Source: Apricaphanius iberus | Taxonomy: Eukaryota; Chordata; Actinopteri; Cyprinodontiformes; Aphaniidae | Reading direction: 5' to 3' | DNA: 64,000 nucleotides | NCBI GenBank assembly: GCA_028564705.1 | Contig: JAPXFQ010000385.1 | Coordinates: 1,488,001-1,552,000, forward strand | In this document: piece by piece, positions 8,450 to 60,293 of the stretch | Layout: each line of letters begins with the position of its first letter | Numbering within the stretch: the stretch's first letter is position 1 | Notes under the pieces: model-generated | Seen by the model: only the letters and a program-made list of their open reading frames with translations | Database searches by the model: none | What the model was told of the DNA's origin: nothing | Translations under genes and position numbers: made by a program

Positions 8450-8880
8450 TGCTAAACAACTAGCATGCTAATGCTAATGTTAGCTAACATGTTGGCATTA
8501 CTATAAACCCATTCAGTACCAAAATATAGTCAAAAAGCTCAAATTAGCTAAAATGCTAACAAGAGCTAGCATGCTAATGCTAACTAGCATGCTAATGCTA
8601 GCTAACATGTTGGCAATACTATAAACCCATTCAGTACCAAAATATAGTCAAAAAGCTAAAATTAGCTAAAATGCTAACAACAGCTAGCATGCTAATGCTA
8701 ACTAGCATGCTAATGCTAGCTAACATGTTGGCATTACTATAATCCCATTCAGTACAAAAATATAGTCAAAAAGCTAAAATTAGCTAAAATGCTAGCAACA
8801 GCTAGCATGGTAATGCTAACTAGCATGCTAATGCTAGCTAAGATGTTGGCATTAGTATTAATAGGATTAGTATGAAAATA
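8450..8880. repeat. 118-bp tandem repeat, about 3.7 copies
   Basis: The marker GTTGGCA recurs at 8491, 8609, 8727 and 8845, an exact 118-bp period. Each unit holds a run of overlapping palindromic words (GCTAGCATGCTAATGC, GCTAGC) followed by a unique part with CCCATTCAGTAC and CAAAAAGCT. Copies differ by point changes, and the last one is the most diverged and is cut short. Confidence 0.9.
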
Positions 8881-8984
8881 TACTGAAAAAGCTGAAATCA
8901 ACTAAAATGCATACAAGTGCAATGTAGTACTGTGTATAACATAGGGATTTTGGTTCCAGCTTTCAAACAAGAAAAAAAAAAATT

Positions 8985-27100: not shown

Positions 27101-27892
27101 TTTCAGGTACAGATGATGGGTGATAAAATAAGATAGCCAATATTTAAAGAAGTGTCATGTTGGCAGAAATATTTTGAGATGTTGGTATTTACATAAATTC
27201 CTTGCTATTATATAAATATTTGTACATATATAAACATCAACATATAAGCACATGGACGCTTTTTTTTAAATACTGCTAAAATACTAACACGTTGTGAGAA
27301 ATAGTGAAATATTTTTCTTATATTGACAAGCAAATTGTTTTTATCTCAAAAATTCTTTGTAATATTTACATATTTGAGCTCTTTTGTAATTACAATTTTA
27401 GCACATGTCCATATATATTATGGTTACAGGATTCTTTTGTTTTAATTGGGATTAGGATAATTCCCTGGGTAGCATTTCATAACATCCAGATATTTAACAG
27501 ATATTAACACTGTTTTGAAAATTATATATACATTGCTTAACATCACATCATACATCAGACTTTCCCAACATAATTTGTTTTTATTCAGTGTGAGAAAAAG
27601 GGCTTATTAATTTAGGGGAAGAGTGGGTTAGGTGGCGCCAATTTTTACCTAAAGTGCCTCCAAAGTAAGGGAACTACAGTAAGGGCTCCAACTAAATAGC
27701 TTAGGATGTTGTGCAACGGAGAGCCTGTGATTGGTCAGCTCAGCAGCAGCCAGATATCTTTTGGCAAATTTGAGCACAAGGAAGTGTACAGATGCTGGTG
27801 AATGTGTTTGTTTATATGTGTTTTTAGAGTATTCTATGAGCTGCACTTCTAGTAAAAAGCTTTACAGCCTAATCAAAACGTACAACAGAGTA
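27101..27892. other. Intergenic, nothing recognised
   Basis: Very A/T-rich sequence without supported genes or repeat ends. Confidence 0.45.
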
Positions 27893-28444
27893 TTAGGGCC
27901 ATTGTAAACAAAAGAAAAATTCAGAAATTCTAAGAGTAAAGTCACATATTTTCCAGAAAAAACACATAAGTTCTCTGATGAAAGTAGTAAGATACAGAGC
28001 AAAAGCCAGACATTTTTAGATTAATATCAAATATTTTCTTGGAATTCTGTAATTCTGATGTAGAAAAGTATGAAATTTTAGAGAAAAAATCCCAAGAAAT
28101 TTTTATGATTAAAGGCATACATTTTTTTATTAAGATTTTCTCACTTTACAATGTCAGAAATATCTTAGTTTAGGTATCGAAAATGTATGCCTTTAATCAT
28201 AGAAATCTCTTTTTTTCTTCTCACAAATTTCTACTTTTCTACATCAGAAAATTTTTCTTTTTTCCCTAGAAAATATGTGCAATTAATGTCAGAATTTCTG
28301 AGTTTTTACTCATAATTTTGCTACTTTTTGACATCAGAGAATTTCCTTTTTTTTTTTCCTGGAAAATGTGTGACTTTTTTCTCAGAAATTTTTTTGGCAA
28401 AAGTTTACTCCAAAATATTTTACTTTCGTTTACAATGGCCCTAA
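27893..28444. mobile_element. 552-bp palindromic element (MITE-like)
   Basis: Both ends read TTAGGGCCATTGTAAAC inward (AAAAG on the left, GAAAG on the right). The inverted similarity continues through the arms: GATTAAAGGCATACAT in the left half and ATGTATGCCTTTAATCA in the right. Non-coding. The target duplication is not clear. Diverged relatives lie at 14661 and 19222. Confidence 0.75.
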
Positions 28445-28530
28445 TGCTCCGTCATAGAGAATGCGTTCACAAGCTGAAGAAAATAAACTTTAGTTGACCA
28501 GAAAAGTATGAGGGGCCGTTTAGACCATAA

Positions 28531-28920
28531 TTCATTCTCCCTCTTACATACATACATGTTCACTCTCACATACATACATTCTCACTCTCACATACATCTA
28601 TTCTCACTTTCATATTTATATATATATTTATTTTACAAATACCACCATACTCTCACACAAATACTATTATACTCATGCACAAGCAATGGTACTCTTTCTT
28701 ACAAATACTTGTATATAATCTTGCATGCATAATCATACTCTCACATAAATACTACTAAACTCTCACATAAACAATAGTATACTCTCTCTCAAATTCCTGT
28801 ATTTACTCTTGCATGCATAATCATACTCTCACACAAATACGATCATAGTCTCATACAAACAATTGTATACTCTCCCATAAATACTTGTATACTTTCTCAC
28901 AAGTATAATCATAGTCTCTT
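28531..28920. repeat. Left terminal and subterminal repeat array of the composite transposon
   Basis: Two parts. 28531-28620 holds about four copies of a roughly 22-bp unit (CATACATACATTCTCACTCT). 28640-28920 holds a looser array built of ATAATCATACTCTCACA, AATACTTGTATA and TTGCATGCATAATCATACTC words. The first part is the inverted counterpart of the right array. Confidence 0.7.
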
Positions 28921-29049
28921 TTATTTACCAGCTTAGTGAATACAAAAAATGGTGTGGAAGTGTTAAGTTTTTTTTAATTATCTTTTGTTATTATATTGTT
29001 ATATATATTATATTGTTAATATTAATGTTGACAATGTTTAAAATTGTTA

Positions 29050-29115
29050 ATTTTTACAGTGTCCTTGGGTGTTTAGAAAGGCGCTATATAAATATAATAT
29101 ATTATTATTATTATA
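29050..29115 (+). repeat. SINE/L2-type 3' tail fragment
   Basis: CTTGGGTGTTTAGAAAGGCG followed by CTATATAAATATAAT and an ATT-rich end, the tail type of fish SINEs and L2 LINEs. Confidence 0.5.
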
Positions 29116-29982
29116 AGTAACAAAATGACTGAATGCAAAACAGCATGATATGGTGTGTAAATGAGAATAGTTGTATGTGTAAGAGAGTTTGACTGAAAAG
29201 GAAGTTAGTTTGATTGAAACGGATATAGAGTTAAATTCTCAGTTTTTTATTGGTTATCTTTCATGAAGAAAAAAGCGGGTTATGACGGACCTGGCCTGCC
29301 CTTCTGGTTTGGGAACATGGCGGAACGAGAGCGCCTTAGTGAGGCCATTAGTCTGCTAAACAACATAATAAGCACTCCAACTGTTGTCTCGACAATGTCA
29401 GAAATGCTGGAACAAACTCGGCAGCCGCCATCCTCAGTGATGTCTTCTAATGAGGCAGTTGAGCAAGAAATACGGCGGCTATTCAGGTCAGGTGTATCCA
29501 GGAGCGCCAGCAGCACTTCCTCCGGAGCTAGCCTCAGTGTGAGCCAGGTGACGCGACCACGATTTCAAACTCAACAGTATTTCGGTGGATGGGCTAAGAA
29601 ATCCAGAAAGAGGTGAGTAAATAAAATAAAATGTTTGTCTATTTTTCTTAGGATGTTGGTGGATCAATTAGTTCTTCTCTGGCAGCAGTATTACAAAAAA
29701 AAAAAAATCAGGATTACGAGTGGACAATGCTTTCGAGTAGCTAGGCTTCAGACCACATATTAAGTTACTAAAGTTTAAAATGATGCGATCTGATTGCTGG
29801 AGCTGGAAACACGAAAAATCAATGACTATAGCGCCAGGTACGGTGATTCTTGGAGAACTTCGTGCTGCAAATGTCCTCTGCTTCTGGTCTCCCGACTGGG
29901 ACGCTGCACGTTGACAGGTAAACTGGTCCTGTGAAGTCATACAACAATACGAAAAAATAATAAAAGAGAATATATATAACTG

Positions 29983-29983
<1 letters not shown>

Positions 29984-30027
<44 letters not shown>
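29984..30027. repeat. (AT)n microsatellite in HECT gene intron 1
   Basis: Uninterrupted alternation of A and T of more than 40 bases. Confidence 0.9.
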
Positions 30028-30028
<1 letters not shown>

Positions 30029-33000
30029 CAGGAATGATGGCTACAGAACACCCATTTAAAATTAAGTTTATATAGCCTAACAAACATAGGTCAATTAAAC
30101 ACTTTTAATTTATTTACCTGAAATTCGCTGCATCGTTATGTTGCCTAGTAACCGATTTTGTTTTCAGTAGGGGGTTTTATGTAAACTCATGCTGACATCC
30201 TTACGTCTTTTGCAATTCCCTTAGTCATCTGAATATAGTCCTTTTTTTATCCCCATAAAAACATCAAGCTCTTTGAACTGAAACCGAATTCTTATCTATT
30301 GAGATTTGCTTCATTCTTGTTTAATTTTCCTGTTCAAGAATGATAAACATTTTCACAAGGATATGATGTAGCCTACTGTATTCTAAAAAAATAATTAACA
30401 AGACAATGGAGTTCTATAGACATTGTCTTTGGCAGTTGTAAAGGTAACGTTACTGATATTGCAATACCAAGGGATAGTTTATGACTCATTCGCCAATTTT
30501 GTTTGGACTTGTCTTGGGTGGATCCTGAGGAGACCGTTTTGAGAGGTTAAAGCAATCTTTGACTGACACAAGCTAACATCATATTTTGTGACCACACTAG
30601 CATATTATTGAATCTAGGTGAGAAAGATGATGTGGTAGTCAAACAACTGGATGCAGTTATCAAGTGCAGCTGCAGCTGGTCTTGCCCAGTAACTGCTTGA
30701 TTTTTTTCCCTCCAAGTGCACCAGATTGATAGCCTGGCTAACGCCAGACCACGTCATTACACACAGCTCATGATCCGTACCTTACAGCGTAAATAAAATC
30801 GTGCTGCGTTCAAGGCAGCATGGGAAAACCCAGGTTACCAGATTGATGCTTTTAACTATAAAACATCCAAAATTTTCTTCTGGGGGAGCAGTCCCCCCCA
30901 AGAGGGGTTGTCCTCTTATCTTTTTCACATATGACATCTTTTTCATGCCTGTGTACTTGTACCTGGCATTAGTATTTAATTTTTTCTGTGCCATGGTGAA
31001 TGACTCATACAGTACAGTATGTTAAGTCTATTGCTATTAATATTTTGTTTCTATAATTTGTTTTAATCATTGATATTGTTTTGCCTTTTTGGTAACTGAC
31101 AACAACTATGCTATTGTCTTTCCTCAATTGAAGCCAACATGATTTAATGGTTTTCTCTTTTAGGGCTGCCCTTCCAAATCATCCTACCTTCAACAAGGAT
31201 GTGGTACTCCTGCCCAATCCTGCATGGGATAAAGTGTGCAAACACAAAACAAAAAGAAGACTTCATGAAAGTGGCTACATTTTAAGTGCCTTTGAAATGA
31301 GTAAAGCATGGGACTGCAAGACTGTCATTGCAGAGATAAAAGAAGCATTCAAGGACAGAATTCCTGAGGATGTCAGGTATGATATTGTTGATTTACTTAA
31401 GACACAACATACACTGTAGCCAATGTGTTGATGCATAACACATTTTGAAATTCGGGTTGTTTTTTAATTTGTTCTTTTCCTTTTTATTATTTGACATGTT
31501 TTTCAGTATTGAACTGTTGATGCCATGTGGAAACAAACTTGTGTCACCAAAGTTGCGCGAAGGCCAGGAACTGAATGGCTTTATGATTCACAAGGTATTC
31601 AAATCTAAGGCAGTGTACATTAGGCCATCAAGTGATCTTCCTTTTACGGTAAGCTATCAAGCATTTGATGCAGAGTGCATATCAATATGGTTTCATGGAT
31701 TGGTTATAGACTCCACCCCAGCATCTTCTAAGTAAATGTTTGTTTTGTTTTGCCAGTTTGACAGCACAGACTCTGAGGACAACTGTATGGATCTTGACAT
31801 GACATCTCCATCTAGTGAGCAGGGCACTAAAACCAACAGTCAGACAAGTGACTATATAATTACAAGGGCCAGGAGGAACCAGATTGCATCAACTCAAGTT
31901 TCCAGTTATACTTTGACTACCACCGCTAAACTGCCCTCAGCAATGCAGGAAGCTACCAGTGAGCTCCAGAATGGAACTAACCAGACTGCATCAACGTACC
32001 CAGCAACTGGTGATGATCTGGTTAGAGCTAGCCATCCCTCTACAACACACCAGGCAACCAGTGATGACCTGACCAAAGTTCACCATCCCGCTGTAGTATC
32101 ACACACATCCATCGTTACTGGCTTGGAGAGCCAGCCTACATCTACTGGCAGTGATGACTATGCCACCTACCTGTCAATTATGGGTTCCATCTCTGACGCT
32201 TCCTCTGACAATGAAGAATTAAATCAGCAATAATGGCCAGTCTTGAGAGTCATGTGTAAGTGCTTTTCACTTAATGGGTTCAGTGATTTAAGATTTATAT
32301 TGACAGCTTTGGCTGAAACTTTTTTGTTACAAACAAATAGTACCTCAAAGATATTTTAGTCTTCTTTCTCATTTGGGATTAAACAAAAGGTGGCCTTTGA
32401 TATACTGCTTGCTTTGCAATTTTATACATGATTTAAATTTCAGAACTAAGCACCTATAGATAAATAGTCTGTGTTATTAAATATTACAGGAGGAATGGTG
32501 TACAAATGGTGAAAGATGACATGTAAATAGTGACTGAAATTATTATATCGGAGAAAGACAGAACACATTCCTCTGAAAGTGGTCATGTACAGTAGGGATG
32601 GACTTTGAAGACCATCAGAAAGATGAAGAACTACAAATCAAGACCCTAGAGTGTTGCAACAAAGTCTTACTGCTCTGAATGCAAATAAAGTAGCATTTTG
32701 CCAAGACTTGCAAAGTACTGTATGCAAATAAAAGCACAAGACTGAAATGGAAAAATGTTTACATTTTATGTCTGCGCTGAAGTCATTGAAGTAGTGATGT
32801 TTAGAGGAATTAGGCCTTGCTTTAATAGAAAGCTATGTGAGAACAAATTGTTAGAATTGTTATAATAACTATATTGTTATCAATATACTAATATTTTTTT
32901 CATTTCAACAGGACATCTGAACAGTCAAACACAAAGTCAGCACAGGAGGTTCTTCTTAGTCTAGGATCCCAAATTAACAATAACCAGAGCTGCAGATTCA

Positions 33001-33240
33001 ACATTAACAGGTCTTCTGTGCTCGACGGTGCTCAACGAGGCTTCAAACGAGTGTCCTATAATCCCATGTACCAGATGTCCATCAAGTTTTCAGATGACTT
33101 GGGAATGGATGAAGAGGCTGTGGACCTTGGTGGCCCTAGAAGAGAGTTTTTACGTTTGCTTTTGGAAGCTGTTGCACAATCACCAATGTTTGAAGGAAGA
33201 GATGGCAAATTGAATTTAGCTTTGGACAGTTCAGGTATAC

Positions 33241-33364
33241 TGCAACAGACTGGCGTCCTGTTCAGGGTGTACCCTGCCTAACGCCTGATAATTGCTGGGA
33301 TAGGCTCCAGCTGCCCCGTGACCCTGAATTGGATAAGCGGTTAAGAAGATGGATGGATGGATGG
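33241..33364 (+). mobile_element. Short LINE/SINE 3'-tail insertion at a splice donor
   Basis: A 124-bp insert begins TGCAACAGACTGGCGTCCTG, passes through GGGATAGGCTCCAGCTGCCC and GACCCTGAATTGGATAAGCG, and ends in a GGATGGATGG simple tail. This module is abundant in teleosts as the 3' end of a 5'-truncated retroposon; the family name is uncertain (L2/RTE-type). The 13-bp direct repeat AGTTCAGGTATAC flanks it (33228-33240 and 33365-33377), proving insertion by target-primed reverse transcription. The duplicated bases include the splice donor CAG|GTATAC of HECT exon 5. Confidence 0.88.
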
Positions 33365-35441
33365 AGTTCAGGTATACATGTTTTGTCATTGCTATATTTT
33401 TCCCAGCCTCAGTTTTTTTGGTTTTTTTGGGGCTTCTGCTTTCTGCCATTCAATTGATCCTGTGTTTTCTGTCTCATGCGTCATGTTTAGCTCTGAGAGA
33501 AGATCGATATTTTATTGCTGGGCAGGCTATTGCTGTAAGTCTTGTCCATGGCGGTCCTCCACCAGGATTCATTTCACCAACACTGTATTCTTGTCTAGTT
33601 GGTGGATGTTCCTCAGTGAAGCCTGTGTTGGAAGATATAGCTGATGCAGACCTCTATGAAAAGGTTAAAAAGGTAAAAAATATTATAAACACTTCTATCA
33701 GTGTATTTTCCTTCACCTTAAGTTATCTTTTTCTAGTCATCCCATATTCATGAACTTTAATATTCTGAATGTTCTACTATAGTCAGTACTGAGTTGGAGT
33801 GTTTGTATATTATACAAACTAACAAAAGATAATACTGTTATCAAACTATGATCCGTTCTTCTGTATTGTAAATTGTGTGCTCTAGTTCAACAATACCTAA
33901 TCCCAAGCATTCAACAAAATGATCAACACCTCTGTTAAATGGTTTCCTTTCTTATATTTCTCTTTTACCATAACACTTAAGGAAGGAGTTGCATTTTTGG
34001 TTGCCAAATTATTTAATTATATTTCTCTATTGTTGTGTTTTTTAGGTGTCAGAATGTGCATGTTTAGAGGACCTGATTCATGCCATTGAACCACTGCAGG
34101 ACTACCTGGCAAATGCTGGGTGTCTCAGACCACTGAAGAGCATTGAGGACAAATACCTGCTGGTTCAAGATATTCTCATGTTTCAAGTGGTCCACAGAGT
34201 CAGTGGGGCATTTGAAAGGTTTGTGAAATACTGTTGACAAGAAATTAAATGGGTGACATTTTTTTCTCATGAAATAAATTATTTGCTACGATTTTCCACT
34301 TTATAAATCCAGTCATTTAAAAACCTTTCTTATTTAGTTTTGTTTCCTTTTCATTTTACTTTTTTTCTTCTGATTAGTTGTCTAAGGCTGATTCCAAAGT
34401 TTAAGAATTTAAACATTGTTCTGAAGTTAGAATTTAAGGTCTATGATTATAGAAAGTGAATTCAGAATAAACAAGAATGCAATTTAGTGTAATCTTGATA
34501 TTATCTATCACAAAATGAACATTTTAAACACAGAATATTTTAATTATTGAGATTTTTACAAAGAATACAAATTACTCATTTTAACGATGTTTGTAATATT
34601 GCTTTTTCCTAAAATTATTGCTAGCTTGTAGATTTTGGACGAGACTTGATGTGAAATTTGGCAAGTAAAGCTACAAAAATATTTATTCTTACACTTACTT
34701 TAAGTGAGGAGTTTTCCCGGTGTCTTTAAGTATATCTATATGTTAACCATAATCAAGTTTACAGGTTTTGTTTTCTTGTGTGTCTTCTTTTTATAGATTT
34801 AGGGAGGGGCTGAAGACACTTGGTGTTCTGGATGCTATCAGAATGTATCCTGATAGTTTCAGACACTTAATGTGTCATGAACCATCCCCACTTACTGCAG
34901 ACATGATGGATCACCTTTTCAACATCCGTCTGTCTGCAGTGGGAAGCAACAAGAGAAGGGCAGAGGAACGTGCGGTCCCATTTTGGAGGGACTACTTGCA
35001 GGATGTTCAGGGTAAATATTGATGTTGGATATGACACATGTTAATGTTTTTTTCATGTATTATTACTGCATCTTAGTTTTAATGTTTGTCTTTCTGAAAG
35101 TTTTTCCTGTTATTCTAAACTTTTAAGAAGTTGCAGTAAGTTCTATTTTTTACTATGGGTTTTGCTTGTGCTTTGTCATTGTTATAGAACAAATGGGACC
35201 ATCAAAGCTTGGCAAAATCCTGGCTTTTGCAACAGGTGCAAGTGTCGTCCCTCCTGTTGGCTTCTCCCCTCAGCCATCAATTTCTTGCATGATTCCTCGG
35301 TCAGCTCTGGACGTCATTTGCCTATGGCAAACACTTGCATCAATTGTCTTAAGTTGCCACTGCTTGACACATATGAAGATTTTAGAGAGAGTATGGACTT
35401 TGCATTAGGTAACACACAAGATTTTGGAAGAGAATAAGATC

Positions 35442-35447
35442 AAATAA
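35442..35447 (+). terminator. Possible polyadenylation signal of the HECT gene
   Basis: AATAAA directly after the stop codon of the last HECT exon (within GATCAAATAAAATACTG). Position is approximate within a few bases. Confidence 0.35.
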
Positions 35448-36269
35448 AATACTGTACCAAGTACCCTGTTGAGAAGATTTAGTTCAGCTATTTTACTTGC
35501 TTGTTTATTTTCTAATTTACTACAAGCAAAACTACCTGGATTTTAATCCAAGTTATCATTTAATAGTGTTGTTTAAAGGAATGAGCCAGACAATCCATAT
35601 TATTGATCTTTTTTGCTTTTTTCTTTGTGCAACACAATCAATGCATTTAAACTTTCTTCACCTTAGAACATATACAGTTGTGCAAAAGAACTCAAATGTT
35701 TGTTACATAATTTGAGACAGATCGGTTTAACAGTATATCGGTAAATGTGTTAAAGAAAAAGTAAGCCACAATGTTTTAATACATCAGCAACTTACTCAGT
35801 TACTGTTCTTTCAGAAAATTTACCAGACATAAAAATACTCGAATACCATAGTTTCCATCCTCTGTCCTCGGGTGTATGGTGTCTTAAATTATGTTCATTA
35901 TGTTACATTAAACTCATTAACTGGAACAACAATATTGTTTTCGGTCTCTACCTGTATAGGGGTATCTGCACTAGAACTTGAATCATCTGCCTATTAAAGA
36001 TGGACTTGGATGATCTATTCCAAATTCCAAATTAATCAGCCAACTGATACACTTTGAAATACTTCAGATTTGTTTTTCTTTTCTTTAAATTTTTTTTCTC
36101 CATGTTTTGAAAATCGTTTTAGGGTTCATTAAGTCGTACTCTAATACGTACTTAATTTTTACTGTACAATTTGTGTACATTTGACATGACCAAGATAAAC
36201 CATTACCAAGTATTTGAAAGAATATTTTTGCAAGTCATTGCTACAAACTAGAATGGTGTTTACAATCAG

Positions 36270-36480
36270 TCAGGGGTCTCCAGAGTTGGTCCTCGGGGAC
36301 CATAGGCTTTGGATGTTTCCTGCTGCAGCACAATGGAATCAGATTTATGGCTTAATATGCTTTTGCGGAACCTAACAAGCTATTAAGGAGAGCCATTTAA
36401 CTTGAATCAGGTGTGTTGGACCAGGGAAACCTCTCATACTTGCAGGACTGGCCCTTAAGATCTGGAGCTGAACACCCCTG
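36270..36480. mobile_element. MITE with imperfect inverted ends inside the composite transposon
   Basis: Left GGGTCTCCAGAGTTGGTCCT and right end reading inverted as CAGGGGTGTTCAGCTCCAGA. The middle contains a partly palindromic GAATCAGGTGTGTTGGACCA block. This is a widespread fish element type, and it lies between the two transposon genes. A relative is at 43865-44085. Confidence 0.55.
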
Positions 36481-37251
36481 CAATAAGACTTTTATTTAAT
36501 ATTTTACAAAGCAGAACCTTTAATCTAATAATCCTCAAATTTACTTGAAATTTGTGTGATTCAAAATTATTTGTTTAATAACTTATTTTTGGATGACAAT
36601 TGATCTACAAAGTTAATTCCTTTGTATTTGATGTGTTCCCCAATATATTTTCTGTGTTACATGAAAATCGGCATGAACATCTGAGTACAACTTCTTTTAT
36701 GAAATGGACACAATCACATTCAGCATATTGTACAGTGAAAAAGGCATGGTCAGTTGTGAATAATGTAATGGGAAATTGATAAATTATGTTTGTTTTGGCC
36801 TTGACTCTAGCGTTTAGGTATACTACCTATGTCCTTTTAAATTCTAATTTTCACATCAGGGTCCACAGTCTACTCGTCCACCAGTTTATTCAACAAAGGA
36901 TATCGAATATTAAACATAAGTATTTCTCTGTGGCAGTTTGAGTTATCCAGGGCCAGACGTTTAATAAAATATTTCATGTGTTTGACTATTTTTTCACAAC
37001 AGTATGAACGTGTATAAAATAAATTTTTTTAATGTAAACATTAAGGTTTAAACTTAAAAATGCATTTACATAGACAAAATTCTGAACAGAGCAAAAACTA
37101 GTTCAAATTATTAAGTGTAATGCTGTGCTATTACAAATCTTGACATTGTATTATTTGACTGGAATTACATTACCTAGATTATATTCATATTTTATTTCTA
37201 ACATCATGTAAAACTGTTGGAAAAGGCTTTTCAATACAAGTATGGATATAA

Positions 37252-38671
37252 CTAGGAATTCCTCCCTTCAAGAAAATGCACAAGGTTGCAAAATAAATCT
37301 ATTCCATGATTTCTATCATCTTCAAAAGGATCAAAAGTGTGCTGAAGATACTGCATTGTGGCATCACTGATAGTTATATTAATAGATGGAATAACAACAT
37401 TATTGTTGGTCTGTAACTGTGAAAGTGTTGCATTATCATTATTACCAAAGTGGCTGTTAAAGTCGAAAATGCCATTCATACTTGGGTTATGTATTCCAGC
37501 ATTGTTGACTACACCCTGCTGCCACAGTTGAAGAGGAGTTTTGCCCCCTTGTGTTGAAAGACCATGGTTATTCCACTGATTCTGAAATTCAGTGGCAGCC
37601 CTTTGAATTCGTGGCAAATAGATGTAATGAAGACAAAATAAATGCAATTCATTAAGGGAATCTAGTACACTTTGCTCCTCCATAAAATTGAACAGATTAG
37701 CAAAATGAAATGACACAACTCTATTCAATTCTGCCCACAATCTCTCAATTCTTTGGTTATGCACTGACCTGCCAGTAATCACACTATTCCTATTTAATCT
37801 TCTCCTGTGAAGCATAAAACGGGCAACGCCAGTGTTTTCCTGTCCATGATCACATCTCACCCTAGATGGTAATCCAAAGTTCTGAGTGCCAGCAATGAAT
37901 AGTGACAAAACACCTGTGGCTCTATTGTTGTCCAGACAAGCAAGGTAGATGATGGTCCGACTGAAACCATCTACACAGCCATGAAACACCATCCTCCATC
38001 TTACAAGCTTGTGGTCTAACACGCCACCTTTGAATGCGTAATCCACGTGACCTCAAGCTTCCATGCACATATCTCTCACCTGCATTTCTAGTTAATTGGA
38101 GAATTTCACCAACAACTCTGTTGAGATTGTCATTTGATATGGTTGAATATGAAATCGGCTGAATCCCAAGCTGTTGCCTGTGCCTGTAAAGGGTGCGACG
38201 GCTTACTCCTAGGCAAGTTGCAATATTTTGCCAGTTCATTCCAAGGGAAACTAAATGAGAGATTTGCTCTTCTGAAATGTTGTACTGAGGTCGAGCTTGA
38301 TGTGTAGTCATGAGTGGCGGTGGCAAAAGGACATCTCTGTTGTCAGATCTGCTTCTTTGTCTGGTTTCATAACCACTCAGCAAAAATTGTAGACATCCGC
38401 ATAAAGACTCTAACATACCAATTACATCTCTGTTTCTTGAATCTTCAACAAATCTTGGGATTGACAGAAATCCAGATAAAATTCTGATATGATCACGAAG
38501 GTCTTCATGGAGCCGCTGATTAACAAAACGATCTGCAGGTTGTCTTTGTATTTGTTCAATACATTCTAAAACCTTTGTAAAAAACAATCTTATATCATTT
38601 TCATTGCTACTTACTCCTAAATTGAAAAACAACAGCAGAGAAGGAATTGCAATGAATTTGAATAGCATCAT
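37252..38671 (-). pseudogene. Integrase-core (DDE) transposase, internally deleted
   Basis: Two overlapping minus-strand frames, 38671-37922 and 38046-37252, together make one protein. The N-terminal frame has a helical region and a helix-turn-helix (ISEEQISHLVSLGMNWQNIA, then LGVSRRTLYRHRQQLG) and GERYVHGSLRSRGLRIQRWR. The C-terminal frame gives the rve-type core: FHGCVDGFSR, an Asp in RVRCDHGQEN, the Glu in VHNQRIERLW, then HLFCLHYIYLPRI. The family usually has a segment between RWRVR and HKLV that includes the first catalytic Asp of the DDE triad. Here the two are fused out of frame at about 38015-38030, so the first Asp is missing and the frame breaks. The start codon is uncertain, since the 38671 ATG precedes a hydrophobic stretch unlike the rest. 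No function is expected from this copy. Confidence 0.82.
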
Positions 38672-38847
38672 TGTATTGTATTGTTCTGTATATTACTACC
38701 ACATCTGGATATTCTAAGCAAGTGTTGTTAAAGCATTTCCTGGTTTGAGAGTCACTTCCTGTACAGGGAAGAACTTCCTGTGTCATTGAAAGTGATGGAC
38801 ACCAAGAAAACAACAAAAAGAGGATACATACAATTTATATGTGTGTA

Positions 38848-39108
38848 TGTGAAGAGAATGTATATATATATATGAGAGTGTATGAATGTGAGATGGAGAA
38901 TATATTTAAGTGTGAGTGAGAATGTATGTATGTGAGAAGGAGAATGTATGTATGTGTGAGTGAGAATATATGTATGTGAAAGTGAGAATATATGTATGTG
39001 TGAGTGAGAATGTATGTATGTGTGTGAGTGAGAATATATGTATGTGTGAGTGAGAATGTATGTATGTGAGAGGGAGAATGTATGTATGTGTGTGAGTGAG
39101 AATATATG
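38848..39108. repeat. Right terminal repeat array of the composite transposon
   Basis: About ten copies of GAGAATGTATGTATGTGTGA with small variants (GAGAATATATG, GAGAGG). It is the reverse complement of the array at 28531-28620. The minus- and plus-strand frames across it are low-complexity artefacts. Confidence 0.75.
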
Positions 39109-39254
39109 TACACCCCCTGCTGTCCAGGTAAGGAATTGCCTTGCAACACAGAAAGATCAATGGAGGACTATAAACAAAAAAATGTCTCTGTCAATGTCTG
39201 CATCTGGGTGCAAACTTCCTGACGGAGAGGTATAAACTAGGTATAAACTATGAA

Positions 39255-39555
39255 ATGTTCATGTACTTGATTAGCAACCATTTTCTCAAGGATTTTGGAT
39301 CAGAAAGAAGGGTTAGATATAGGTCTGTAATTAACTAAGTCATATTGATCGAAGGAGGGTTTCGTAAGTAAATGTTTAATTACAGCAACCTAAGCTCCTG
39401 TGGTATGTATCCATAAGGATAGATTCAGCATATAAAATAGGTCCAGTAACCAAAGGAAACACTTCTTTAAATAATTTGGTTGGGATTCGGTCCAACATAC
39501 AAGCTGAACGTTTAAATAAAGCTAATAGTTTTTTACAATTCCAAAAGCTGGGCTG
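39255..39555 (-). mobile_element. L2 LINE fragment (reverse transcriptase N-terminal part)
   Basis: Closely parallels 59130-59440 of the large L2 copy: TTTTCTCAAG, GGTTAGATATAGGTCTGTA, TTTAATTACAGCAA, CTCCTGTGGTA and CTTCTTTAAATAATTTGGTT blocks in the same order. The minus-strand frame reads DRIPTKLFKEVFPLV, the segment before the RT fingers. It is heavily frameshifted and is placed immediately beyond the right transposon end. Confidence 0.75.
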
Positions 39556-42269
39556 GATCAAACAGTCCAAACATAAATGAGGTTGAGCGGATCTGGAACC
39601 TGGTTTGTCAGTGTTTTGGAGGACTAATAAATCTGGCCAGTTTCCTAGAAAGAAGAGGTACTCTTGGCATCTGAGTGGGTTGTTAGCTCATGTCAGTAAA
39701 GGACTATTTTGACTGGGAATAATTGCTTATAATAATTACTGTTTACATTTCGTTCACTCAACAACATTCATTATTGCTAAATCAACCCAAATTAGTTATG
39801 TGCATTTTTTTCCATGTGCGTGTTGGAGGGTTAACAGTCAAAAAGATGTATGTGATAAAAACATTGCAAATGTAATTCCCGTTCCAATGAATATGTCATG
39901 GGTGGCTATATTTAGTCATCTTTCAATTTTTGGATGCATTCTTTCGGTAATACACCACATCGCCATATGTGATACACTTCCTTTTTATAGGGTCATGTTG
40001 GTTTGGATAGCTTTTTTTCCCTCAATGAATGAATACACCAACTAAAAACTGTTGCTCAGATTGTCTTCATCTGACAATAAAGGGGATATGATTATCTTAA
40101 ACAATTAAAACTGAGCAAAAAGCATCCACATAAAATTCCTCGCAAGAAATCATTTCTCACAGCTCTATAGAAAGATTTCAGAGAGAACTTTTCATGATTA
40201 TCTTTGTTTTGTCTTGGGGTTCTTTGTACTGTTTTATGAATTACTGAAAACATCTCTAGCCAATTCCCAGGTTTTTTTTTTTTACTCGCTTAATTTCTTA
40301 ATTGACGTGTAGCTACATTTTCCTAATGCTAAACAAATTTAGATTTAAGAAATGTCTAATACTTTGCCTTTTTAATGTGTTGTACTCGTTCAATGGGTTT
40401 AGGAAATGTATTTTAAATGTTAATATAGCTTGTCATTGCTGAAATTATATATTTGTGGCACTTCAAAACTATTTGCTAAACTGTTAACACAAAAGTCTAC
40501 AAATTAAGTCAACAAGATAACACATGCATGTAATGTGATTTTTCTGAAGGAGTCTCTTTGCAGGAAAATACGCAACCCTATCTCTTTCTTGTCCTGAGGA
40601 AAGAAGGTTCTTTGAGTCAAAAAGCCTAGTAAGGATTTATAAGAAACCAGGATATCTCCTAGCAGAGGAAGCTAAGAACATATTTGAATCCAAAGCCAAA
40701 CAAATGAAAGAAAAACAAAAGAAGGCGTGTTTGATTAGTATTAAAGAATTTTAATCAGCGCACAGCACGTGTTGCAAGGTTTGGTGTGAAAGAGACCATG
40801 TGCAAGTGGAAGGCTCCAAGGTTTTAATGTTTCAGAAAGAAGCTAATTTGATGCCTTTGCTAATAATTATTAATCACAAAACAGAACTAATCTTGAAATA
40901 AGTTTCCCACTACAATGGCCAATAACGTTAATTTGACAAGCAAATTGGAACTTACCCTCAGAGCTTATGCGACTGTTTCCATGTAGTTTGTCACTGTGAC
41001 TGCATCATCTAACACCAAGTTGAAACTGTGCTACTACAAGTAGGTAGTTGTTGATGTTATTCTCCATTTGCTGCAGACACAAAGTCCCACAACCTTTTTT
41101 TTGTAAGGATCCTAATAACCCTAACACCCCCTGTGAGAAGCCTAAACTGTCTCCTCTCTTTTCATGTTGCAGCAGGGGAAAAAATTGGAATGTTATCAAT
41201 CAAATAAAAATGAAGCAAGCCAGTGCACAAGTAATTGATGCATTCTTATGGTGACACACATTTTTAATTTTCCAAGTTGCTCCTTGAAGCTCAATGTGGG
41301 ATGATTTAAATGGTGTGGGGATGTTAGTAGACCCAGAACACTCACTCAACAACTAAACAGGGAGGAAGGAGAAGCCAGAAAAACCTTTACCAACACAATT
41401 TCCATCTCTGACTCAATAGTCACAGTCTTTCTGGCAACTTTATTGCACAGAAACCCTACAGGTCTGGTCTCGGTTCACCTTAGAATCTAGCAGCAGGAGA
41501 ATTGGATGGACCCATAGCAGCAATCCGTGGATCCAAAAGCCAGCCTTATTACAAGTCCATTAAAATACAGAAAAATGCTCTGATGCACTCGCTGCTTAAA
41601 GCCAAGCCCTGCTTGACTGCTTCTGATGAGTCCACATTAGCCTCATTAAGTGATTTATCAGGTAAAAAATAGCTAAGAGTCCACTGTGGTATCTCATAAG
41701 AAGGAGCTGTGTGTCATTTTTGTCCTCCCACCACTTGATTTCCCACCTTCTCATTTGGTAGTGGGAAGTGCGAGTGCTATTTGGACAAGGAGGACAGCCC
41801 ACTCCAACTTTCACTGATTGACTGTAAATGGCATTTAACTTTGAATATTTTCTTGCATGGTCTTCAGGAAACAGAATGGTTAAAACATGCACATATCTGC
41901 CCGTAGATCCTGTCACTACAGATCAGGATTTTTTTTTTTTTTTTTTTTTTAAAGCCTGGGTGCCCTGAAATGAATCAGCTGTTTGTGTAAAGTACTACAT
42001 CCATCTACAACAATGAACAAGAGCATGATGCTGTGTGACATATTACTTAATGTTTTGTTTTGTTTACCTAAGTAGAGATTGTTATACAAAATAGTCTAAG
42101 TTATTGTTTATGACTATGTGCCTGATAAGGCTCAGGTTATTATAAAATAATGGATGAAGGATTAAGACTGTGGCTTTCTTCGAAAATATGTTACAACATA
42201 TGTATACAGAACAACAACAAACAAAGACTTTCCAAAATACAAGAGAATAATAAAAGAAATCCAACTTTC
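39556..42269. other. Intergenic, nothing recognised
   Basis: A/T-rich sequence without supported genes. A run of about 22 T lies at 41930-41951. Confidence 0.4.
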
Positions 42270-54726: not shown

Positions 54727-54996
54727 CTACTAACATTAACCTGTCTCCTAGCTACTAGGAGACCTAGCTACTAACACTTTCTACCTGGCTTACATTAACC
54801 TATCTCTACCTAGCTACTCTACCTCTTCCTATCTCTTCCTAGCTTTTGATACTCTACCTGACTACTAACATTAACCTGTCTCCTAGCTACTAGGAGACCT
54901 AGCTACTAACACTCTCTACTTGGCTTACATTAATCTATCTCTACGTAGCTACTCTACCTCTTCATATCCCTTCCTAGCTTTTGACACTCTACCTAG
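54727..54996. repeat. 135-bp tandem duplication in the L2 3' UTR
   Basis: CTACTAACATTAACCTGTCT starts at 54727 and again at 54862. Both units run through CTAGCTACTAGGAGACC, TGGCTTACATTAA and CTAGCTTTTGA. The CTAGCTAC word, also the hAT target, recurs several times. Confidence 0.85.
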
Positions 54997-57868: not shown

Positions 57869-60293
57869 CTAACTGTAAGCTTTGTCAAAGAGGAAAGTTT
57901 TAAGGCTAGTTTTAAAGATATACAAATTGTCTGCTTCACGAACCAACCCTGGGAGCCTGTTCCATAGGAGGGGAGCCTGATAACTGAACGATCTGCCACC
58001 CATTCTACTTTTAGAAATCCTAGGAACTACCAGTAAACCTGCAGTCTGAGAGCGAAGGGCCCTGTTAGGAACATATGGAACAATCAGGTCTCTTATGTAT
58101 GATGGAGCTAGATTATTAAGAGCTTTATATGTCAGAAGGAGGATCTTGAATTCTATTCTAGATTTTACTGGGAGCCAGTGAAGAGAAGCTAAAACAGGGG
58201 AAATGTGATCTCTTCTTTTAATATTCATCAGAATCCTAGCAGCAGCATTTTGGACTAACTGAAGACTTTTAATTGTTTTCTGTGGACTACCTGATAATAA
58301 AGAGTTACAGTAATCCAGTCTTGAAGTAATAAAGGCATGGACTAGTTTTTCAGCATCATTCCTGGACAGGATGGTTCTAATTTTTGCAATATTCCTAAGG
58401 TGAAAAAAGGAAATCCTAGAGACTTCTTTAATGTGAGATCTAAATGACATATCTTGGTCAAAAATAACACCGAGGTTCTTTGCTTTATTACTGGAGGCTA
58501 ATTTAATGCCGTCCAGGTGAAGGCGTTGACTAAGTAGTTTATTTTTCACAGCTTCTGGTCCAAAGACGACAACTTCTGTTTTATCAGAATTCAGAAGAAA
58601 GAAGTTTAGAGTCATCCAAGTTTTTATGTCTTCCAGACATGCCTGTAGTCTACCTAACTGATTGGATTCATCAGGATTTATGGATAGATATAGCTGTGTA
58701 TCATCTGCGTAACTATGGAATTTTATCCCATGCTGCCTAATTATTTTACCAATAGGAAGCATATATATAGTAAAAAGAATCGGCCCAAGCACTGAACCCT
58801 GTGGTACTCCGCAAGTAACTTTTGAGGTTGAGGAGGGTTTATCATTTACTTGAACAAACTGAAATCTGTTAGACAAATAAGATTTAAACCAGCCTAGGGC
58901 TGTTCCTATTATACCGACACGTTGAAGCCTTTCTATGAGAATATTGTGATCAACAGTGTCAAAGGCAGCACTGAGATCTAACAGGACCAGAATGGTCACC
59001 AGTCCATTGTCTGAGGCTATGAGAATATCATTAGTAACCTTCACCAGAGCTGTTTCAGTGCTGTGATGAGCTCTAAAGCCTGACTGAAACTTCTCAAACA
59101 GCTCATTATTGTTTAAATGCTCACATATCTGGTGTGCAACTATTTTCTCAAGAATTTTAGATAAGAAGGGAAGATTAGATATCGGTCTATAGTTAATTAA
59201 GTCGTTTTGATCAAGAGATGGTTTCTTAAGTAGAGGTTTAATTACAGCAATCTTAAACTCCTGTGGTACATATCCATTGACTAAGGATAGATTCATTATA
59301 TCTAAAATTGGAGCAGCGATCAGAGGGAAAACTTCTTTTAAGAGTTTAGTTGGGATTGGGTCTAAAACGCAAGTTGAAGGTTTAGATGAAGCTAATAATT
59401 TTAGTACATCAGAAGGTTCGGCTGCATTAAAGCAGTTTAAGCGTATATTAGGTTCAACCATTTTTGATGTTGCCTCATTAACTAGGGAGGAAGCAAGCAT
59501 ATACGTTTAAGCATATATTAGGTTCAACCATTTTTGATGTTGCCTCATTAACTAGGGAGGAAGCAAGCATATTGGGAAGGTTCCCAATTATTTTATTTTT
59601 TATAGAGTCTATTTTATTTATAAAGAATTGCATGAAGTCATCACTACTAAGAGCTTGGGGAATGGTTGGCTCGATAGAGCTATGATCCTGTGTGAGTTTA
59701 GCAACTGTATTAAAAAGAAACCTAGGATTATTTTTATTCTCCTCGATTAAAGATGAATAATATGCTGTTCTAGCTGTTCGAAGGCTCTTTTTATATAGCA
59801 ATAGACTATTTTTCCACACTAAATAGGAATCCTGTAAATGCGTGGAGCGCCATTTTCTCTCTAGTTTTCTAACGTTCTTCTTCAGGGTATGTAGCTCTGA
59901 ATTAAACCAGGGAGCTAATCTTCTAAGGCTGGCCACCTTCTTTTTCAGTGGGGCAACTTTGTCTATTGCCAGACGCAGGGAGGAATTAACGCTATGAACT
60001 AGAACGTCAAGTTGTGAGGGGTTACGAGTTAAATCACTGTTTTCTATTGTACTTTTATGTACTGAGGAAATTAAAGTTGGAAGAGCTTCTTTAAAACTTG
60101 CTACAGCATTGTCTGATAACATTCTGGTATAATGAAGTTTTCTTTCAGGTTTGATATGATCTGTTAGAGTAAGTTTAAAAGTGATGAGGAAATGATCAGA
60201 CAGGATAGGGTTATGTGGAAAGACTGTTATTTCTTCACAGTCAATGCCATAAGTCAGCACAAGATCTAAGGTGTGGTGACAGTAAACGGGCAC
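57869..60293 (-). pseudogene. L2 LINE endonuclease/reverse transcriptase, split by a 70-bp duplication
   Basis: Two frames make one protein: 60293-59478 (endonuclease edge and linker, with APWFNSELHTLKK and NPRFLFNTVAKLT) and 59500-57869 (RT and C-terminal domain). RT motifs seen: YRPISNLPFLSKILEK, FQSGFRAHHSTETALV, LDLSAAFDTVDHNILI, CGVPQGSVLGP, the catalytic YADDTQLY, and the late LHWLPVKSRIEFK and PLLWNRLP blocks of L2. The frame break is caused by the tandem duplication 59435-59504 / 59505-59572. The 5' part of the endonuclease is absent, so the copy is dead on arrival. The RT region from 59500 down to the stop at 57869 is otherwise fully open. Confidence 0.9.
59435..59572. repeat. 70-bp tandem duplication inside the L2 coding region
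   Basis: GTTTAAGCGTATATTAGGTT begins at 59435, and GTTTAAGCATATATTAGGTT begins at 59505. The two units are otherwise almost identical through GAGGAAGCAAGCATAT. Seventy bases is not a multiple of three, so it shifts the frame. Confidence 0.93.

What the first reader, a model, noticed from the sequence alone, without database searches (positions are those of the whole stretch)
28531..39108. A HECT ubiquitin ligase gene riding with an integrase-type transposase between inverted repeat arrays
Seen: a nine-exon HECT gene and a DDE integrase-core gene converge and are bracketed by tandem arrays of one 20-22 bp motif in opposite orientations. Known: DNA transposons need only a transposase, and a ubiquitin ligase passenger is unusual. 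Inferred: this is one transposon of about 10.6 kb whose HECT protein may help its life cycle, for example by targeting a host factor or the transposase for ubiquitination. I have a vague memory that fish G2E3-like genes are highly multiplied, which transposition would explain.
Basis: partly seen in the sequence, partly recalled or inferred. Interest (0 to 1): 0.75.

Follow-up and report, generated by a model that had tools for sequence, protein, structure and literature searches.

The report
Jumping gene carrying a ubiquitin ligase
A fish genome holds a family of cut-and-paste jumping genes that carry, beside their own transposase, a ubiquitin-tagging enzyme, which appears to be kept by selection and swapped between related elements; this suggests why "G2E3-like" ligase genes are so numerous in fish.

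Summary
A nine-exon HECT gene (+) and an integrase-type transposase gene (-) converge between inverted 22-bp arrays. Element ends are TATGAGGGGCC...GGCCCCTCATA. Of 17 end pairs tested, 16 have an exact 6-bp target-site duplication, including 6 of 6 that enclose matches to both genes. Contig C1229 carries the window's own family, co-linear through both genes. The window copy starts at 28507, has lost its right tip and is disabled in both genes. TA..TA ends, 6-bp duplications and the DDE core fit the IS3EU superfamily. The HECT protein is not a G2E3 orthologue: it keeps the catalytic Cys and -4 Phe that the five G2E3 proteins compared lack, has no finger domains, and carries a UIM-like motif. 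Between families both genes show near-saturated synonymous and restrained amino-acid divergence, so the ligase looks selected. Sister transposases in this genome carry two different HECT lineages: the ligase is exchanged between elements. What it ubiquitinates is unknown.

The parts
28507..28517 (+). left terminus of the element, TATGAGGGGCC; flank GAAAAG at 28501-28506
   Evidence: exact match, the only one in the window; terminus plus TCTCAC in 79 genome places, backward control 0
28526..28918 (+). left subterminal array of 22-bp units (possible transposase binding sites, inferred)
29317..29612 (+). HECT exon 1
31164..31376 (+). HECT exon 2 (N-terminal folded domain, first part)
31507..31648 (+). 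HECT exon 3 (N-terminal folded domain, second part)
31757..32255 (+). HECT exon 4: linker and UIM-like motif; frameshifted in this copy, stop at 32231-32233
32912..33234 (+). HECT exon 5: start of HECT domain; its end lies inside the repeated site of an inserted SINE-like sequence
33491..33672 (+). HECT exon 6
34046..34218 (+). HECT exon 7
34797..35011 (+). HECT exon 8
35188..35437 (+). HECT exon 9: catalytic ANTCINCL; frameshifted in this copy
37252..38671 (-). DDE transposase gene (rva_4), single exon, two frames (38671-38015 and 38016-37252); lacks residues 220-256 of P0001 with the first catalytic Asp
38839..39110 (-). right subterminal array, inverted; outer tip of the element lost at about 39104-39110

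Best explanation
This is an old, disabled copy of a cut-and-paste DNA transposon of IS3EU type with two convergent genes. Shown: common ends TATGAGGGGCC...GGCCCCTCATA, 6-bp target-site duplications, subterminal 22-23-bp arrays, a DDE transposase gene and a HECT gene inside one mobile unit, short TIR-bounded derivatives, and exchange of the HECT gene between sister elements. Inferred: the transposase binds the ends through its HTH and cuts and joins with its DDE core. The HECT protein is an active ligase (catalytic Cys and -4 Phe kept; UIM-like motif; N-terminal domain whose secondary-structure order resembles a beta-grasp) that acts for the element. Most likely it ubiquitinates a host chromatin, repair or silencing protein; second choice, the transposase itself. 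Probabilities: one transposon 0.97; ligase catalytically active in intact copies 0.8; acts on a host factor 0.5.
Against: The window copy itself shows no target-site duplication and lacks its right tip. 8 of 27 HECT contigs have no transposase match. Many transposase matches, mostly more distant from the query, have no HECT match (not counted), so the ligase is not needed by every relative. Window against C1229 gives dN/dS 0.65 (transposase) and 0.76 or 1.20 (HECT, two alignments), near neutral, as expected after inactivation; transposase dN/dS within the window's clade is 0.29-0.74. No ligase activity, substrate or expression was measured. The five near-identical contigs (C267, C927, C1021, C1323, C1803) are partly one locus, so the 19 are not 19 independent insertions. 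In C2, C1433 and C1579 the HECT match covers only part of the gene.
Confidence: 0.88

Rival explanations
1. The HECT gene is a captured host gene carried passively; it gives the element nothing and is kept only because it lies between the ends.
For: Many related transposase matches have no HECT match nearby, and 20 of the 26 inverted TIR pairs are only 1.28-2.31 kb long. The window copy decays near neutrality.
Against: HECT divergence between families is about as restrained as that of the transposase, synonymous sites being near saturation. Catalytic Cys and -4 Phe are kept in most full-length transposon-type models while all five host G2E3 proteins compared have lost both.
Confidence: 0.15
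2. The HECT protein controls the element's own transposase (turnover, or removal from the ends after strand transfer) and not a host protein.
For: Both genes lie in one unit. No direct evidence.
Against: Elements with closely related transposases carry different HECT lineages, which is not expected if the ligase must fit its own transposase closely.
Confidence: 0.25
3. Two separate transposons lie side by side or nested, and the pairing in the window is chance.
For: In protein trees the window's transposase and HECT fall into clades with different species (AU p 1e-110 and 4e-5, groups named after the first trees were seen).
Against: C1229 repeats the same pair between the same ends with a 6-bp duplication, and 19 of 19 linked pairs are convergent. 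No array units or long inverted repeats that could be inner ends were found between the genes.
Confidence: 0.02
4. The HECT gene is a host G2E3 paralogue next to which an element landed.
For: NCBI names many relatives 'G2/M phase-specific E3 ubiquitin-protein ligase-like'.
Against: No finger domains in the transposon type, catalytic residues differ from G2E3, and matches lie inside TIR-bounded copies.
Confidence: 0.01

Closest known systems
IS3EU / GingerRoot DNA transposons (Kojima & Bao 2023, PMC10045372, passages read)
   Same: TA..TA termini, usually 6-bp duplications, integrase-like DDE transposase without HHCC motif, first catalytic Asp 100-300 residues from the N-terminus
   Different: Carries a HECT ubiquitin ligase gene; 22-23-bp subterminal arrays; the words HECT and ubiquitin do not occur in that main text
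Fungal TET+ IS3EU transposons (PMC12730594, passages read)
   Same: IS3EU with accessory genes; alpha-kinase gene opposite in orientation to the transposase; accessory genes pass between transposon lineages
   Different: Accessory enzymes are a TET/JBP dioxygenase and an alpha-kinase; HECT and ubiquitin do not occur in the main text
Ginger1 transposons (Bao et al. 2010, PMC2836005, passages read)
   Same: Integrase-like transposons with ubiquitin/SUMO-pathway enzymes; the authors suggest that the ubiquitin pathway is involved in transposition
   Different: OTU/Ulp1 proteases that remove modifiers, fused to the transposase; 4-bp duplications according to PMC10045372; here a separate ligase gene
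Host G2E3 ubiquitin ligase
   Same: Nearest named host HECT protein in the list (candidates limited to 0.55-1.75 times the query length), mostly 39-44% identity over about half of the query
   Different: G2E3 has finger domains (Pfam PF13771 and others; names recalled) and has lost the catalytic Cys and -4 Phe in the five proteins compared

Membership tests
IS3EU/GingerRoot superfamily | TA..TA termini | tested here: met
   TATGAGGGGCC...GGCCCCTCATA in host copies (C1229 right end and C808 left end differ at one base); window left end exact, its right end lost
IS3EU/GingerRoot superfamily | target-site duplication usually 6 bp | tested here: met
   16 of 17 tested TIR pairs exact; C1963 differs at one base; not testable for the window copy
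IS3EU/GingerRoot superfamily | no HHCC motif before the core; first catalytic Asp 100-300 residues from N-terminus | tested here: met
   D255 in P0001; no invariant His or Cys among the columns before it in 21 aligned sequences; Pfam shows only sub-threshold HTH-type matches there
IS3EU/GingerRoot superfamily | phylogenetic grouping with Repbase IS3EU transposases | not testable with these tools
   Repbase sequences are not held
Ginger1 | transposase with C-terminal OTU or Ulp1 domain and zinc finger | tested here: not met
   Pfam scan of both window transposase parts at E <= 0.1 gave rva_4, weak HTH-type and two other sub-threshold matches, no OTU, Ulp1 or integrase zinc finger
HECT E3 ligases | HECT fold | tested here: met
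HECT E3 ligases | catalytic Cys in C-lobe | tested here: met
   [AH][NH]TC in 78 of 120 listed proteins; the 42 misses include host G2E3 rows and many models with other C-termini
HECT E3 ligases | ubiquitin ligase activity | not testable with these tools
   no assay
G2E3 orthologues | finger domains (PF13771 and others) N-terminal to HECT | tested here: not met
   none in 29 transposon-type proteins at E <= 1; listed for host G2E3 rows such as P0217 and P0233

The most novel reading that the evidence does not exclude
Teleost IS3EU-type transposons carry a selected, exchangeable ubiquitin-ligase cassette. Elements with sister transposases swap HECT lineages, and the same HECT lineage occurs in distantly related fish (72% identity over almost the whole length, linker included, between Paramormyrops and Misgurnus), so the cassette may travel horizontally. 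The ligase would be a counter-defence or host-manipulation enzyme, a 'writer' counterpart of the OTU/Ulp1 'erasers' of Ginger1 and Mutator elements.
Probability: 0.35. Interest if true: 0.85.

Novelty: new variant of a known kind. Interest (0 to 1): 0.72.

Why it matters
DNA transposons are usually thought to need only a transposase. Here a second gene, for a ubiquitin ligase, appears to be conserved about as strongly as the transposase and to move between elements. That makes a question raised for Ginger elements, whether transposition uses the ubiquitin pathway, directly testable with a two-gene element. It also warns that many fish genes annotated 'G2/M phase-specific E3 ubiquitin-protein ligase-like' are probably transposon genes. 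Published copy-number or B-chromosome signals attributed to g2e3 (PMC5638112 and PMC7976721, passages read) may reflect this element; that link is inference, not tested.

Tried and rejected
Rejected: chance neighbourhood or nested elements (C1229 and five other copies with both genes and duplications); host G2E3 paralogue (no fingers, different catalytic residues); a 6-bp repeat CAGAAA around the window copy as its duplication (about one such match is expected by chance, and it does not abut the ends). Led nowhere: scans of viral contigs with transposase, HECT and array letters (no relative); genome contigs gave only three short contigs with transposase relatives in a record titled as a sponge symbiont (probably sponge DNA, inferred); a chimeric HECT+transposase probe showed no protein with both domains among the 120 of 358 listed. 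One fused gene model was found, P0091 of Dissostichus, but its HECT part is at most 49% identical over short stretches, about 33% over 92 residues, to the listed HECTs. The N-terminal domain's fold was not tested alone; the beta-grasp reading rests on secondary-structure order only, and a sequence search of PDB gave no significant match. Correlating HECT and transposase identities over species gave r 0.16, which looked like evidence against linkage until the genome showed gene exchange. Papers: no paper describing a HECT gene in an IS3EU or integrase-type transposon was seen in the listings of searches; Repbase Reports and subscription papers are not held.
Full report
What is in the window. 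On the + strand a gene of nine exons runs from 29317 to 35437; its spliced reading matches one 787-aa fish protein over 100% of the query at 71% identity, so the N-terminal part and the HECT domain belong to one protein. On the - strand a single-exon gene runs from 38671 to 37252; its C-terminal part hits Pfam rva_4 'Integrase core domain' with E 3.3e-73, and D255, D312 and E347 (numbering of P0001) lie in the conserved motifs of 21 aligned relatives; D255 and E347 are invariant, D312 nearly so. The predicted fold of a relative (mean pLDDT 65.9, so modest) ranks retroviral integrases first, best Foldseek E 2.9e-3, none at 0.001 or below. Arrays of one 22-bp unit flank the pair in opposite orientation (score 139 against a control maximum of 33 in 155 random stretches).

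State of this copy. Relative to P0121 the HECT frame is shifted in exons 4 and 9, and the transposase lacks residues 220-256 of P0001, including the first catalytic Asp, its two parts lying in different frames. A SINE-like sequence lies at 33234-33363 with a repeated 12-bp site at the exon 5 donor (the SINE name is recalled). So this is a dead, old copy.

Element ends. Near-identical host copies on contigs C267, C927, C1021, C1323 and C1803 lose similarity at a sharp point, and the common end is TATGAGGGGCC. The same terminus stands exactly once in the window, at 28507. A genome scan for the terminus followed within 20-50 bases by TCTCAC gave 79 matches, backward control 0; 26 are + / - pairs less than 20 kb apart, 20 of them 1.28-2.31 kb long. 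A scan for the window's own type of terminus, up to 2 mismatches, gave 24 matches, control 0.

Target-site duplications. I tested 17 pairs of ends, picked by hand: 11 of the 26 pairs and 6 of the 7 pairs (the seventh, C1559, has no flanks). Exact 6-bp duplications: C1021 GGTGAG and C1363 TGTGCA, C2, C682, C1127, C6, C201, C242, C678 and C460, C1229 GATAAG, C1579, C1433, C1755, C1092 and C808 (read by eye): 16 of 17. C1963 differs at one base. Six of these copies enclose matches to both genes: C1021, C1363, C2, C1229, C1579, C1433; in C2, C1433 and C1579 the HECT match is only part of the gene. In addition, the C1803 and C927 contigs each end inside a copy and share the flank GCGTTT, so they look like two halves of one insertion. 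The window copy has flank GAAAAG on the left and no recognisable right tip.

Linkage in the genome. The HECT search gave 71 matches on 27 contigs. On 19 of these contigs the transposase search has a match in convergent orientation: 18 within about 15 kb, and C1229 at 22 kb. All 19 are convergent (counted by eye from the tables). Eight contigs (C102, C217, C469, C1697, C103, C1366, C223, C408; 42-53% identity in the HECT match) have no listed transposase match. The five near-identical contigs are not independent. Many transposase matches, mostly more distant, have no HECT match; I did not count them. Each query was one protein and only the best candidates are scored, so other lineages may be missed on both sides.

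The window's own family. C1229 aligns with the window in pieces over 28501-36084 and 37380-39088, the main pieces at 88-96% DNA identity, through both genes (I fetched 222000-226000, 247500-252000 and 265500-269300 of it), is bounded by the same ends (223677 and 268686) and has the duplication GATAAG. Its 45 kb imply inserted DNA that I did not read. This is the decisive copy: both genes moved as one unit. C1559 is a 16,555-bp contig that runs from one base inside one end to one base inside the other; a collapsed multi-copy repeat is the likeliest reason.

Gene exchange. In trees with reference fish proteins, transposases of C227 (window), C1229, C1559 and C614 form one clade (bootstrap/SH-aLRT 99/99), but the HECT genes of C227 and C1229 fall with Dunckerocampus and Perca (100/99), while those of C1559 and C614 fall with Melanotaenia, Misgurnus and others (100/99) (C614 HECT covers 44% of columns). 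Window against C1559: transposase dS 0.36, HECT synonymous differences saturated (pS 0.84-0.86). In the fetched parts, DNA similarity of C1559 to the window covers the transposase half (37206-39107, 79-87%), the terminus (28508-28631 against the transposase-side end of C1559, 78%), a 422-bp piece between the genes (36202-36616, 68%) and, in the HECT half, only 108 bp of exon 9 (72%) and the SINE-like sequence. C614 behaves alike. C1559 4115-4199 and 15000-16499 and C614 146501-147899 were not fetched. The window type of terminus stands on copies of both HECT lineages: C227 and C1229, and C1559 and C614. The protein-only analysis had shown the same discordance between species, which I first read as possible evidence against linkage.

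Selection. Leaving out the same-family pairs C227/C1229 and C1559/C614, HECT pN is 0.15-0.32 while pS is 0.70-0.90, near saturation; transposase pN is 0.20-0.33 with pS 0.68-0.78 across transposase clades and 0.10-0.19 with 0.29-0.38 within the window's clade (dN/dS 0.29-0.42). Where dS can still be estimated, C1021 against C174 gives dN/dS 0.07-0.08 for HECT and 0.13 for the transposase. C1559 against C614 gives 0.74 for the transposase and no HECT difference in 154-155 codons. Window against C1229 gives 0.65 (transposase) and 0.76 or 1.20 (HECT, two alignments), as expected for dead copies. dS values above 1.5 are rough.

Other fish. From protein listings only (120 of 2080 transposase hits; 120 of 157 HECT hits among capped candidates): Scophthalmus maximus LOC124850943 (HECT) and LOC124850944 (transposase) are consecutive, with the same longest-contig length; Triplophysa rosa has both on one 103,140-bp contig; Misgurnus LOC129423994 and LOC129423984 differ by 10. 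For five other species with comparable identifiers (Parambassis, Coilia, Melanotaenia, Dunckerocampus, Pungitius) the listed numbers are far apart. A Paramormyrops and a Misgurnus HECT are 72% identical over 795 columns including the linker, which suggests but does not prove horizontal transfer.

Literature. PMC10045372 (passages) gives IS3EU as TA..TA ends, usually 6-bp duplications and no HHCC. PMC12730594 (passages) reports fungal IS3EU with TET/JBP and alpha-kinase genes and transfer of accessory genes between transposons. PMC2836005 (passages) reports OTU/Ulp1 in Ginger1 and proposes that the ubiquitin pathway is involved in transposition. PMC5638112 (one passage) lists a G2E3 match among unclassified repeats in a copy-number study of Cottus; PMC7976721 (passages) lists g2e3 among B-linked genes in Astyanax. 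PMC12763893 (passages) names IS3EU in killifish; HECT does not occur in its main text. Listings 7, 8, 13, 26, 27, 32, 58, 59 and 88 showed no paper on a HECT gene in such a transposon; the library is open-access only.

Verdict. One transposon: shown. IS3EU type: the tested features are met, and grouping with Repbase members could not be tested. HECT as a selected, exchangeable part: well supported in this genome. What the ligase does: unknown; a host chromatin, repair or silencing factor is the first guess, the transposase the second.

Noticed in passing
38606-38671 (-) and relatives P0001-P0003, P0005, P0008-P0016, P0019, P0021, P0025: Fish transposases begin with a hydrophobic, signal-peptide-like segment of about 19-26 residues (in P0005 and P0025 after a longer start) before NE(N/D/E)DI or its like (15-residue Kyte-Doolittle maximum 1.41-2.86 in these 16 models); 17 of the 95 further listed rows also exceed 2.0. 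Odd for a nuclear enzyme; unexplained.
   Followed up: partly
27885-28452: A roughly 570-bp MITE-like unit with 36-bp inverted repeats ends about 55 bp left of the element.
   Followed up: no
33234-33363: SINE-like tail inserted at the donor of HECT exon 5 with a 12-bp repeated site; similar pieces occur in the C1559, C614 and C1363 loci.
   Followed up: no
39253-39584 and 59115-59454: A dispersed repeat shared at 75% identity starts about 140 bp right of the element.
   Followed up: no
G000:C1559 (16,555 bp): A contig that consists of one element from just inside one end to just inside the other; collapsed repeat or free element not told apart.
   Followed up: no
P0134 (Sardina pilchardus) and P0091 (Dissostichus mawsoni): Gene models that combine this HECT type with PF20231, and another HECT with the rva_4 integrase.
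   Followed up: partly
8471-8910, 54727-54994, 59435-59572: Other tandem arrays in the window with periods of 118, 135 and 70 bp.
   Followed up: no
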